DNA from: Solirubrobacter pauli
Lineage (GTDB): Bacteria > Actinomycetota > Thermoleophilia > Solirubrobacterales > Solirubrobacteraceae
Length of the DNA: 64,000 nucleotides
Reading direction: 5' to 3'
Assembly: GCF_003633755.1 (NCBI RefSeq)
Contig: NZ_RBIL01000001.1
Coordinates: forward strand, 1,535,426-1,599,425
Of this stretch, positions 15,423 to 19,625 are shown one piece after another. Position numbers and translations under genes: made by a program. The number at the start of each line of letters is the position of its first letter. Within the stretch, counting starts at the first letter, position 1. The notes under the pieces are model-generated. The model did no database searches. It worked only from the letters and a program-made list of their open reading frames with translations, and had not been told where the DNA came from.

Positions 15423-16207
15423 GCGCTGCGCCGCTACGAGCCGAATCGGTGACGCTGGCCTACGACGCGCGCGTGGTCGCCGAGCGGTTGACGGTCGACA
15501 TCCCCGAGGGCGGCTTCACCGCGATCGTCGGCCCGAACGCGTGCGGCAAGTCGACCCTGCTGCGCGCGCTCGTGCGGATGCTCAAGCCGCGCGCGGGCAG
15601 CGTCCTGCTCGACGGGCAGGAGATCTCGTCGCTGCCGACCAAGCAGGTCGCGCGCCGGCTCGGCCTGCTCCCCCAGTCCTCGGTCGCACCGGACGGGATC
15701 ACGGTCGTCGACCTCGTCGCGCGCGGTCGCCATCCCTACCAGCGGCTGCTGCGCCAGTGGTCGCACGAGGACGAGCGCGCCGTGAACGAGGCGATGGCGC
15801 AGACGCACATCGAAGAGCTCGCCACGCGTCTGGTCGACGAGCTCTCCGGTGGGCAGCGCCAGCGCGTCTGGATCGCGATGGCGCTCGCGCAGGAGACGCC
15901 GCTGCTGCTGCTCGACGAGCCGATCACCTTCCTCGACATCGCCCACCAGGTCGAGGTGCTCGACCTGTGCGCGAAGCTCCACGTCGAGGGCCGGACGCTC
16001 GTCGCGGTGCTGCACGACCTCAACCACGCGTGCCGCTACGCGACGCACCTGATCGCGATGCGCGACGGCGCGGTGGTCGCCGAAGGACCGCCGGCGGAGA
16101 TCGTCACCGCGGAGCTGGTCGAGCGCGTCTTCGGCCTCAAATGCCTCGTCGTGCCGTGCCCTGCGACGGGGGCGCCGATGGTCGTCCCCGCCGCCTCGCA
16201 GGCGTGA
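15419..16207 (+). CDS. FepC-like ABC transporter ATPase for siderophore uptake
   Basis: 262 residues with all ABC motifs: Walker A GPNACGKST (~residues 36-44), Q-loop LGLLPQSS, signature LSGGQRQRVWIAMALAQ, Walker B LLLLDEPITFLDIAHQ and switch His in AVLHDLNHACRYATH. The VARGRHPYQRL segment after the Q-loop is typical of FepC/BtuD-type siderophore ATPases. Cytoplasmic; powers the two FecCD permeases. ATG at 15419 overlaps the permease stop by 4 bp, and its own TGA overlaps the GTG of the following exporter gene. Confidence 0.95.
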   Translation: MSAAPLRAESVTLAYDARVVAERLTVDIPEGGFTAIVGPNACGKSTLLRALVRMLKPRAGSVLLDGQEISSLPTKQVARRLGLLPQSSVAPDGITVVDLVARGRHPYQRLLRQWSHEDERAVNEAMAQTHIEELATRLVDELSGGQRQRVWIAMALAQETPLLLLDEPITFLDIAHQVEVLDLCAKLHVEGRTLVAVLHDLNHACRYATHLIAMRDGAVVAEGPPAEIVTAELVERVFGLKCLVVPCPATGAPMVVPAASQA

Positions 16208-17961
16208 CGGGCGGCGCGCTGCTCCGGGGCGTCGTGCGCGCCCACCGGTGGCGCGTGGCTCTCGCGGCCGCGTTGCTGGGCTCACACCAGGGCTTCGAAG
16301 CGCTCGTGCCGGTGGTCGTCGGCGCGGCGATCGACGACGCGGTCGCGCCCGGGGACGGCGGCGCCCTGCTGCTCTGGGTCGGGCTCCTGGCCGGGTTGTT
16401 CGTGCTGCTGTCGACGGCCTACCGCGAGGGCGCGCGGGCCGAGGAGCGGGCGCGCGAGACCGCGGCCCACGGGCTGCGGATGCGGGTGCTGCGGCGCGTC
16501 GTCGACCCGCGCGGCGGCGGCGAGGCCGGGCTCATGCCGGGCCAGCTGCTGAGCGTGACCACCGCCGACGTGGACGCGTCGGCCGGCGTGATCGCGGGGA
16601 TCGGCTACGGCGCGGGCGTCGTCGTCGCGCTGGTGGCAGGGACGGTCGTGCTGCTGGTGACGTCGGTGACGCTCGGCCTGACCGTGCTCGTCGGGCTGCC
16701 GGTGATCGTCTGGGCCGGCGGCCGGCTGGGCGCCCTGCTCAGCCGTCGGGCCGCGGGCCAGCAGGCCGAGGCCGCGGACGCGTCGGGCGTGGCGGCCGAC
16801 CTCGTGACCGGGCTGCGCGTGCTCCAGGGCATCGGCGCGGCGGAGACGGCCGCGGAGCGCTACCGGGCGGCGAGCCGGTCGTCGCTGCGGGCGACGCTGG
16901 CCGCGGCCCGCGCGGAGATCGCGCTGGGCGCGGTCGCCGTCCTCGTCGGCGGCCTCGCCGTCGCCGGCGTGGCGTTCGTCGGAGGCCGGCTCGCGCTGGA
17001 CGGCGAGCTCTCGCTCGGCGAGCTGATCGCGGCCGCCGGCGTCACGCAGTTCCTGGTCGGGCCGCTGAGCCGGCTCGCGTGGGTCGGCGGGTTGCTGGCA
17101 CGGGCGCGCGCGTCGTCGGCGCGGCTGGCCGAGGTGCTGTCGGCGCCGCCGGCCGTGCCCGCACCCGCTGAGCCGGTCGCCTTGCGGTGCAGCGCGGCGC
17201 CGACCGTGGCGATCGGAGGAGCGCAGACGCCGTGGGAGCCGGGAGCGCGCGACCCCGGTCGCGCGGAACCGGCTTCGCCGCAAGAGGGGGATGTTCCGCG
17301 CGGACCGGGGTCGCGCGCTCCCGGCCGGGGCGCCACGCCGGACGCTGACGACGCCGCACCGCGGGTGCACGTGCCCGCGGGCTCGCTGTTCGGCGTCGTC
17401 GCCGACGACCCGGCTCCGCTGCTGGCCGCGCTCGCTCGGGAGGGTCAGGACCTCGCGGTGTTCGTCGACGGCGTGGCGCTGGCGGCGCTCGATCCGGCCG
17501 CGGCGCGCGCGACCGTCGTCGTGGCCCCGCACGAGGCCACGCTGCTGTCGGGCACGGTGCGCGACAACGTGCCCGGCGGGGCCGACACCGCGCTCGCCGC
17601 CGCGGCCGCCACCGACGTGATCGCCGCGCTGCCGGACGGGCTGGACACCGAGCTCACCGACGCCGGCAGCTCGCTGTCGGGCGGCCAGCGCCAGCGGATC
17701 GCGCTCGCCCGCGCACTGGCGACCGACGCGCCGGTGCTCGTCCTGCACGACCCCACGACCGCGCTCGACGCGGCGACCGAGGCCCGCGTCGCCGCCGCCC
17801 TGCGCGACGCCCGGCGCGGCGCCACGACGATCCTGGTGACCACGAGCCCGCTTCTCCTGGCCGCCTGCGACCAGGTCGCGCACATCACCGGTGGCACCGT
17901 CACCACGGCCAGCCACGCCGCCCTGCTCGAGGACGAGGCCTACCGGGAGGCGGTCGCGTGA
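16204..17961 (+). CDS. ABC exporter-type half-transporter with degenerate ATPase domain (partner A)
   Basis: 585 residues from GTG 16204 (4-bp overlap). Residues ~1-310 form a six-helix type IV exporter membrane domain. The nucleotide-binding domain is degenerate: the Walker A position reads FGVVADDPAPLL (~396-407) instead of GxxGxGKST, the Q-loop Gln is His (~443, VVAPHEATLLSGTVRDN), and Walker B has LHDPTTALD with His515 and Asp516 replacing Asp-Glu. The ABC signature LSGGQRQRIALARAL (~491) is perfect. This half therefore contributes only a signature motif to a heterodimer with the next gene. The ~60-residue linker before the ATPase domain contains a palindromic insertion (17238-17325). Possible role in siderophore export or IrtAB-like import. 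Confidence 0.88.
   Translation: MTGGALLRGVVRAHRWRVALAAALLGSHQGFEALVPVVVGAAIDDAVAPGDGGALLLWVGLLAGLFVLLSTAYREGARAEERARETAAHGLRMRVLRRVVDPRGGGEAGLMPGQLLSVTTADVDASAGVIAGIGYGAGVVVALVAGTVVLLVTSVTLGLTVLVGLPVIVWAGGRLGALLSRRAAGQQAEAADASGVAADLVTGLRVLQGIGAAETAAERYRAASRSSLRATLAAARAEIALGAVAVLVGGLAVAGVAFVGGRLALDGELSLGELIAAAGVTQFLVGPLSRLAWVGGLLARARASSARLAEVLSAPPAVPAPAEPVALRCSAAPTVAIGGAQTPWEPGARDPGRAEPASPQEGDVPRGPGSRAPGRGATPDADDAAPRVHVPAGSLFGVVADDPAPLLAALAREGQDLAVFVDGVALAALDPAAARATVVVAPHEATLLSGTVRDNVPGGADTALAAAAATDVIAALPDGLDTELTDAGSSLSGGQRQRIALARALATDAPVLVLHDPTTALDAATEARVAAALRDARRGATTILVTTSPLLLAACDQVAHITGGTVTTASHAALLEDEAYREAVA
17238..17325. repeat. 88-bp palindromic element inside a coding sequence
   Basis: Arms 17238-17269 and 17293-17325 are reverse complements apart from a single unpaired base, separated by a 23-nt loop. 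The left arm begins GCCGGGAGCGCGCGACCCCG and the right arm ends with its complement. It is read in frame as a Pro/Gly/Arg/Asp-rich stretch in the linker between membrane and ATPase domains. Palindromes of this length are not expected by codon choice and suggest a small mobile or REP-like element tolerated inside the protein. Confidence 0.8.
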
Positions 17962-19625
17962 AGGCGTTGCCGACCGCGACCCCGCGCGAGTCCTGGGCCG
18001 TCGTCCGCGAACTCCTGCGCCCGCGTCGCCGCCAGGCCGCGATCGCCCTCGGGGTGCTCGTCGCGGCGGCCGCGCTCGGCCTCGCCGGTCCGCTGCTCCT
18101 GGGCGAGATCGTCGACCGCGTCGACGAGCAGCGCTCGATCACCGGGCCCGCGCTGGCGCTCGTGGGGGTCGCGATCGGCGAGGCGCTGCTGTTCGCCGTC
18201 GGCCTGATCCTGATCTCGAACCTCGGCCAGCCGGTCCTCGCGGCCCTGCGCGAGCGCGTCGTCGCGCGCGCCCTCAAGCTCCCCGCCGAGCAGGTCGAGC
18301 GCGGCGGGCGCGGCGACCTGCTCTCGCGCCTGGGTGACGACATCGCGGTCCTCAGCGAAGCCGTCGTCGAAGCCGTCCCGCCGCTGGCCGCGGCGAGCCT
18401 GACGCTCGGGCTGACGTTCGTCGGCCTCGCCACGATCGATCCGCGGCTCACGCTCGCGGCGCTGCTCGTCGTGCCCGTGCAGGTCTGGGCGGTCCGCTGG
18501 TACGCGAAGCGAGCGGGCCCCGCCTACGCCGACGAGCGCCGGGTCAGCGGCGAGCGCGCGCAGGCGATCCTCGACGTCGTCGGTGGCGCCCGGACGATCC
18601 GCGCGCTCGGCCTGCAGCCGACGGCGCTGCCGCGCGTCGAGGCGCGCTCGCTGTCCAGCGTCGCCGCGGTCGTCCGGACGATCCGCATCTCCACGCACTT
18701 CAGCTCGCGCCTGAACGCGGCCGAGTTCGTCGGCACCGCCTCGACGCTCGTCGCCGGCTACTTCCTCGTCAAAGCCGACAGCATCTCGGTCGGCGCGGCC
18801 ACCGCCGCCGCGCTGCTGTTCATCCGCACGTTCGACCAGTTCAACATCGTGCTGGGCACGATCGACGAGGCGAACCGCGCGCTCGCCGCGCTCGCCCGGC
18901 TCGTCGGCGTCCTCCAGGTGCCGGAGCCGCCGCCAGCCGAGCCGCATCCCGGCGCGCACGTCGCCCTCGACGGGATCCGGCACGCGTACGACGGCGGGCC
19001 GACCGTCCTGCACGACGTCGACCTGCACATCGCCGCGGGCGAGCGGGTGGCGGTCGTGGGCGTGTCGGGCTCGGGCAAGACGACGCTGGCGAAGGTCGTC
19101 GCGCGCTTCCACACGCCCACGGACGGCACGGTCGACGTCGGCCAGGTCGCGCTCGTCACGCAGGAGGTGCACGTGTTCGCGGGCACGCTCGCGGACGACC
19201 TGCGGCTGGCGAAGCCGGACGCCACCGACGAGCAGTTGCAGCGCGCGCTCGACGCGGTCGACGCCGGCTGGGCCCGCCTGGACGCCGTCGTCGGCCACGG
19301 CGGCGTCGAGCTCACGCCCGCGCAGGCGCAGCAGCTCGCGCTCGCGCGCCTTCACCTCGCCGACCCGAGGATCGCCGTCCTCGACGAGGCGACGGCCGAG
19401 GCGGGCAGCGCCGGCGCGCGCGTCCTCGAACGCGCCGCCGACACGGTCCTGCGCGGCCGCACGGCGCTGGTCGTCGCGCACCGCCTCACGCAGGCGGCCC
19501 GCGCCGACCGGATCATCGTCATGGACGCGGGCCGGATCGTCGAGAGCGGCACGCACGCGGAGCTCGTGGCGGCCGAGGGCGCCTACGCCGCCCTCTGGCA
19601 CGCCTACACCGCCGACCGGGCCTAG
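17958..19625 (+). CDS. ABC exporter-type half-transporter with degenerate signature motif (partner B)
   Basis: 555 residues, ATG overlapping the previous stop by 4 bp. An exporter membrane domain (residues ~1-310) is followed by an ATPase domain with intact Walker A GVSGSGKTT (Lys ~374), Q-loop VALVTQEVHVFAGTLADD, Walker B AVLDEAT (Asp476, Glu477) and switch His in VVAHRLTQAARADR. The ABC signature is lost: VELTPAQAQQLALARL (~452) replaces LSGGQ. It complements partner A exactly, so the heterodimer would have one complete ATP site (Walker motifs of B with signature of A) and one dead site. The 3' end overlaps the convergent lipoprotein gene by 4 bp. Confidence 0.9.
   Translation: MKALPTATPRESWAVVRELLRPRRRQAAIALGVLVAAAALGLAGPLLLGEIVDRVDEQRSITGPALALVGVAIGEALLFAVGLILISNLGQPVLAALRERVVARALKLPAEQVERGGRGDLLSRLGDDIAVLSEAVVEAVPPLAAASLTLGLTFVGLATIDPRLTLAALLVVPVQVWAVRWYAKRAGPAYADERRVSGERAQAILDVVGGARTIRALGLQPTALPRVEARSLSSVAAVVRTIRISTHFSSRLNAAEFVGTASTLVAGYFLVKADSISVGAATAAALLFIRTFDQFNIVLGTIDEANRALAALARLVGVLQVPEPPPAEPHPGAHVALDGIRHAYDGGPTVLHDVDLHIAAGERVAVVGVSGSGKTTLAKVVARFHTPTDGTVDVGQVALVTQEVHVFAGTLADDLRLAKPDATDEQLQRALDAVDAGWARLDAVVGHGGVELTPAQAQQLALARLHLADPRIAVLDEATAEAGSAGARVLERAADTVLRGRTALVVAHRLTQAARADRIIVMDAGRIVESGTHAELVAAEGAYAALWHAYTADRA

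What the first reader, a model, noticed from the sequence alone, without database searches (positions are those of the whole stretch)
17238..17325. Long palindromic element inserted in frame inside an ABC transporter gene
Arms of 32-33 nt with one unpaired base lie in the inter-domain linker of a half-transporter. The encoded peptide is Pro/Gly/Arg/Asp-rich and unlike the family. In-frame palindromic elements inside proteins are known mainly from Rickettsia; a GC-rich actinobacterial counterpart would be notable. The transcript would also form a very stable hairpin between the membrane and ATPase coding parts.
Basis: partly seen in the sequence, partly recalled or inferred. Interest (0 to 1): 0.75.

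Follow-up and report, generated by a model that had tools for sequence, protein, structure and literature searches.

The report
Mobile palindrome inserted within transporter gene
A roughly 140-base piece of DNA that folds into a long hairpin has inserted itself into the middle of a transporter gene of the soil bacterium Solirubrobacter without breaking it, adding 48 amino acids to a linker; the same element sits in frame inside five other unrelated genes of the genus, a habit best known from Rickettsia.

Summary
Window 17238-17325 is a hairpin with a 32-bp stem and one bulged base, inside an intact ABC half-transporter gene. It belongs to a dispersed repeat family: a second copy (91% over 105 bp) in the same genome, eight in Solirubrobacter deserti CPCC 204708, one in a third species, one diverged in a fourth, and none in 225 other genomes of the order. 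The nearest orthologues of this transporter lack the whole 144-nt (48-codon) stretch 17218-17361, so it is a recent in-frame insertion. Six of 11 distinct sites are inside genes without breaking the frame: ABC half-transporter, DUF2339, LysR regulator, GT4 glycosyltransferase, FtsX permease, PMT. Empty orthologous sites are clear for four. Arm positions co-vary almost without G-U-type intermediates, which points to a DNA palindrome. It works like a Rickettsia palindromic element but is a different family: no CGTC or GTAG tag, longer stem, several reading phases. No mobiliser was identified; Y1 transposase genes of the genus carry unrelated hairpins. Target-site duplication was not resolvable.

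The parts
17218..17361 (+). whole inserted stretch relative to orthologous transporters, 144 nt = 48 codons (GAQTPWEPGARDPGR...DDAAP)
   Evidence: absent from G003 and G004 orthologues; ends defined by protein alignment, so good to a few codons
17238..17325 (+). conserved 88-nt hairpin of the repeat family
   Evidence: inverted repeat and fold; family alignment and covariance model
17238..17269 (+). left arm, 32 paired bases
17293..17325 (+). right arm, 32 paired bases plus bulged G at 17302
17270..17292 (+). apical part with small hairpin 17270-17280 and the invariant stretch GGGGGAT
   Evidence: fold and family alignment
17218..17237 (+). left tail; about 18 nt conserved among copies (GAGCGCCGNCGCCGTGGTG-like)
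   Evidence: flank comparison
17326..17361 (+). right tail, weakly conserved
   Evidence: flank comparison and empty site
16204..17961 (+). host gene, ABC half-transporter (TMD then NBD without Walker A)
   Evidence: Pfam ABC_membrane 28-288, ABC_tran 420-518 of 585 aa
17958..19625 (+). partner ABC half-transporter, overlapping start
   Evidence: Pfam ABC_membrane and full ABC_tran

Best explanation
This is a copy of a short, non-autonomous, palindromic mobile element of the genus Solirubrobacter, about 110-145 bp long: an 88-90 nt hairpin with short tails and no gene of its own. After this species split from its nearest sequenced relative, a copy entered the flexible linker between the membrane and ATPase domains. 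Its length there is a multiple of three and it has no stop in any frame, so it was kept as a translated 48-residue spacer. Copies landing out of frame or in essential folds are presumably lost; those in loops, linkers and intergenic gaps survive. Shown: the repeat family, genus restriction, empty orthologous sites, open in-frame reading in six genes, paired arm changes. Inferred: that copies spread by transposition, probably with the single-stranded hairpin recognised by an enzyme acting in trans; that the arms stay matched by DNA-level correction or by descent from perfect source copies; that the peptide is a passive spacer and the mRNA hairpin is unwound by ribosomes.
For: Second copy in the genome, E 5.8e-37. 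Copies at 11 distinct, unrelated loci of the genus and none in 225 other genomes of the order. Empty sites at the window gene, LysR, GT4 and PMT. In-frame reading with family domains beside the insert. Both-sided changes at 12 of 35 pairs against 4.2 in shuffles, no one-sided changes. All six frames open in 11 of 11 copies. Three reading phases in six genes, so the DNA rather than a peptide is what spreads.
Against: No transposase or autonomous partner was found; Y1 genes of the genus carry other hairpins. No target-site duplication could be read, because even the closest empty sites have diverged. Copy number is low (0-8 per genome). FtsX has no tested empty site, the DUF2339 linker is variable, and translation of the insert is not shown experimentally.
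Confidence: 0.85

Rival explanations
1. The hairpin is kept as a functional RNA element (mRNA stabiliser, attenuator or translation pause between the two domains), and its positions reflect regulation rather than spread of a selfish element.
For: Very stable RNA fold. One intergenic copy lies between livH-like and livM-like genes, a place typical of REP-like stabilisers.
Against: Host genes and positions are unrelated, orientation and phase vary, orthologues do without it, no Rfam family, and arm changes avoid the G-U intermediates expected of an RNA under selection.
Confidence: 0.07
2. The copies did not transpose as a discrete element but were spread by recombination, for example gene conversion between copies or import of DNA from relatives.
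For: Low copy number, no target-site duplication or transposase seen.
Against: Flanking genes are unrelated and sequence similarity ends shortly outside the hairpin, so there is no homology for recombination; empty sites differ from filled ones only by the element-sized insert.
Confidence: 0.06
3. Local origin: the linker grew by slippage and template switching, making a palindrome in place without any mobile element.
For: The linker is variable; S. deserti has an unrelated Pro/Ala-rich stretch at the same place.
Against: The same 88-nt sequence recurs at unrelated loci at 82-93% identity, including a LysR effector domain and intergenic gaps, which local mutation cannot explain.
Confidence: 0.02

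Closest known systems
Rickettsia palindromic elements (RPEs) and Wolbachia palindromic elements
   Same: Palindromes of roughly 100-150 bp, dispersed, some of them inside ORFs without destroying the frame (PMC3767692; PMC10969869)
   Different: No sequence relation seen; GC about 80%; free-living actinobacterium; no CGTC tag at the ends; [quoted passage not shown]
GTAG- and CGTC-tagged REPs, with RAYT transposases for the GTAG kind
   Same: Dispersed hairpins, some intragenic in several species; half-copies and clusters occur (PMC3733652)
   Different: Stem 32 bp against 5-13 bp; no GTAG or CGTC tag at the foot; no element beside the Y1 genes of the genus; Actinobacteria not among the phyla listed in that survey
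MITEs (for example ERIC, RUP, NEMIS, BOX)
   Same: Short, non-autonomous, palindromic, able to land inside genes and give in-frame fusions (PMC10969869)
   Different: No parent insertion sequence with matching ends and no readable target-site duplication here
Mycobacterial interspersed repetitive units (from general knowledge, not checked here)
   Same: Actinobacterial dispersed short repeats compatible with reading frames, often within operons
   Different: Tandem direct repeats at gene junctions, not long palindromes inside domains

Membership tests
Protein-coding palindromic repeat (the RPE kind, taken as a way of working) | Dispersed palindromic family found in frame inside unrelated genes | tested here: met
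   Six genes, orthologues without the insert in at least four
RPE families of Rickettsia | End tag CGTC (reported for RPE-4 and RPE-6) | tested here: not met
   No CGTC at a constant place at the foot of the hairpin in the aligned copies and flanks (read by eye)
RPE families of Rickettsia | Conserved encoded peptide within a family | tested here: not met
   Six coding copies use one sense and two antisense phases
GTAG REP | GTAG tetranucleotide at one end, stem of 5-13 bp | tested here: not met
   No GTAG at the foot; stem of 32 bp
REP/RAYT system | Element flanks a Y1 (RAYT) transposase gene | tested here: not met
   Hairpins beside the Y1 genes of the genus have another sequence, CTAAAGAGGGAC..GTCCCTCTTTAG
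MITE | Target-site duplication at insertion | tested here: inconclusive
   Empty and filled sites too diverged at the junctions
MITE | Ends matching an autonomous insertion sequence | tested here: inconclusive
   Left-end pattern in seven genomes hit only the elements and one half copy; a parent with diverged ends would be missed
Known structured RNA family | Match above an Rfam gathering score | tested here: not met
   Only two microRNA models far below their cut-offs

The most novel reading that the evidence does not exclude
Solirubrobacter hosts an independent, GC-rich class of protein-coding palindromes that spreads by a hairpin-recognising enzyme not yet identified, is readable in all six frames, and is kept palindromic in place by DNA-level arm-to-arm correction even inside genes, so that it is a recurrent source of new protein linkers in a free-living actinobacterium.
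Probability: 0.35. Interest if true: 0.7.

Novelty: new variant of a known kind. Interest (0 to 1): 0.52.

Why it matters
In-frame palindromic inserts in proteins have been treated mainly as a peculiarity of Rickettsia and its kin, with some shorter tagged REPs elsewhere. A clear case in a large-genome, free-living actinobacterium, with empty sites in close relatives, shows that the route from selfish DNA to protein segment does not need an AT-rich, reduced genome. It also gives culturable bacteria in which to test how such inserts move, whether the mRNA hairpin matters, and whether the added peptide is neutral.

Tried and rejected
Link to Y1/RAYT transposases: such genes exist in the genus but carry unrelated hairpins, and one Y1-bearing genome (G004) has no element. 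Known RNA family: none. Phage or plasmid origin: no phage hit, one 42-bp Streptomyces plasmid hit taken as chance, no exact core in viral contigs. Wider spread in the order: none in 225 genomes. Target-site duplication: not resolvable. Selection for stop-free frames: small effect once GC is allowed for. Single-sequence AlphaFold model of the host protein: mean pLDDT 45, not used. G001 and G006 were first counted as two species; scaffold names and lengths indicate two assemblies of strain CPCC 204708, so their copies are counted once.

Full report
Check of the observation. The palindrome is at the stated place and is far beyond chance. Arms 17238-17260 and 17303-17325 match perfectly; after one bulged G at 17302, nine more pairs close a 23-nt apical part that itself holds a small hairpin. 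The RNA fold of the stretch is -96.2 kcal/mol against a shuffled mean of -70.9 (z -5.6). No other inverted repeat of comparable quality exists in the 64-kb window. The gene 16204-17961 reads through it without a stop, with ABC_membrane before and ABC_tran after the insert.

A repeat family. Searching the whole genome gave a second full copy at C1:3886744-3886848, 91% identical over 105 bp, E 5.8e-37. It lies in the opposite orientation inside a DUF2339 membrane-protein gene, again in frame. Relatives of the same genus carry more: eight in G001 and the same eight in G006, one in G003, a diverged one in G005; G002 and G004 have none. An exact core pattern in the named genome collection hit Solirubrobacter deserti CPCC 204708 and Solirubrobacter sp. 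CPCC 204708. The scaffold length of the first (141072) equals that of G001:C32, so the genus is Solirubrobacter, and G001 and G006 are very probably two assemblies of one strain; their copies are counted once. A covariance model built from 12 copies run over 232 genomes of the order found only genus members. Nothing convincing was found in phages, plasmids, viral contigs or Rfam.

Anatomy. In the close copies the core is GGAACCGG(G)CTTCGCC(C)G..RGAGGGGGATGTTCC, flanked by a stem such as GCCGGGNGCGCGCGACCCC. Of 35 model pairs, 12 have changes on both sides in nine copies (shuffled mean 4.2, 0 of 500 shuffles as high); 22 cells change on both sides and none on one side only. With all 12 copies the counts are 34 against 3. 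An RNA under selection would be expected to pass through G-U pairs, so their near absence points to a DNA palindrome, either because source copies were already perfect or because arms are corrected against each other. Cells count sequences, not events, so this remains an inference. The DUF2339 copies of G000 and G003, which sit at the same place in the same gene, differ at 11 positions that include two paired changes (7/82 and 26/62), which hints at change in place. About 18 nt left of the hairpin are conserved and the right side weakly. At three S. deserti sites the left half or tail is repeated outward, in one case as a 27-bp tandem array.

Insertion, not ancestry. The closest orthologues of the window transporter, in G003 (86% identical) and G004 (81%), lack residues 339-386, that is 17218-17361, 144 nt. 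S. deserti has an unrelated Pro/Ala-rich stretch in the same linker. A LysR regulator of S. deserti has an insertion of about 45 residues that is absent from five orthologues in the genus; its GT4 glycosyltransferase and its PMT protein have insertions that orthologues lack. The DUF2339 insertion is shared by G000 and G003 and not seen in the others, although that linker is variable. FtsX orthologues could not be searched, so there only the open frame and the position just after the first FtsX domain are known. Of 11 distinct sites, six are in frame inside genes: ABC, DUF2339, LysR, GT4, FtsX, and PMT (the last near the N-terminus, after the predicted start). Five are between genes: livH/livM-like, pfkB/phosphoesterase, upstream of a DUF5691 gene, between ORFs upstream of an Nramp gene, and the G005 copy.

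How it can be tolerated. Every copy is open in all six frames (11 of 11), but shuffled copies average 5.6 of 6, so high GC explains most of this. The coding copies are read in three different phases and in both orientations, so no particular peptide is being spread; the product is a Pro/Gly/Arg/Ala-rich spacer. Insert sites are linkers, loops or termini as judged from the alignments; no usable structure model was obtained. In a gene-dense genome (about nine tenths coding, general knowledge) six of 11 is no enrichment for genes. The simplest reading is random insertion followed by loss of harmful copies.

Mobiliser. Unknown. Y1 (HUH) transposase genes exist in six of seven genomes, but the hairpins beside them have another sequence, and G004 has such genes and no element. 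No insertion sequence with matching left ends was found, and target-site duplication could not be resolved.

Comparison with the known. The habit is that of Rickettsia palindromic elements: palindromes of 100-150 bp, some inside ORFs without destroying the frame (PMC3767692; PMC10969869). Intragenic REPs tagged GTAG or CGTC are reported from several other bacteria, and Actinobacteria are not among the phyla listed there (PMC3733652). The present element lacks these tags, has a much longer stem and no constant peptide. I therefore call it a separate family that works like an RPE: a new variant of a known kind. No report of such elements in Solirubrobacter was found in the papers searched, which cover open-licence papers only.

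Noticed in passing
window 16204-17961 and 17958-19625: The host half-transporter has lost the Walker A motif (GVVADDPAPLL where GxxGxGKT is expected) but keeps LSGGQ; the partner keeps Walker A and Walker B but has a changed signature (LTPAQ). The loss is shared by the orthologues, so this is a heterodimeric transporter with one dead ATP site, downstream of FecB/FecCD-like uptake genes.
   Followed up: partly
L078, L080, L087 (S. deserti copies): The left half or tail of the element is repeated outward next to three copies, in one case as a 27-bp tandem array (GGCCCACCACGGGGCCGGCCTCACCGC).
   Followed up: partly
L088-L099 (Y1_Tnp loci of the genus): Y1 transposase genes of the genus have their own short hairpins of the type CTAAAGAGGGAC-N-GTCCCTCTTTAG nearby, a separate REP-like system.
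   Followed up: partly
L119/L124 (S. deserti transporter orthologue): The same linker has gained an unrelated Pro/Ala-rich repeat stretch (SPPAATAAGSATVPSPPAATVPAP), so this linker accepts inserts repeatedly.
   Followed up: no
L085:4082-4168 (G005): A diverged relative keeps mainly the apical core (GAAATCGGGCTTCGCCCGGGGAGGGGGGACATTTC) with different arms, just after a gene end; the family may be older and more varied than the close copies suggest.
   Followed up: partly
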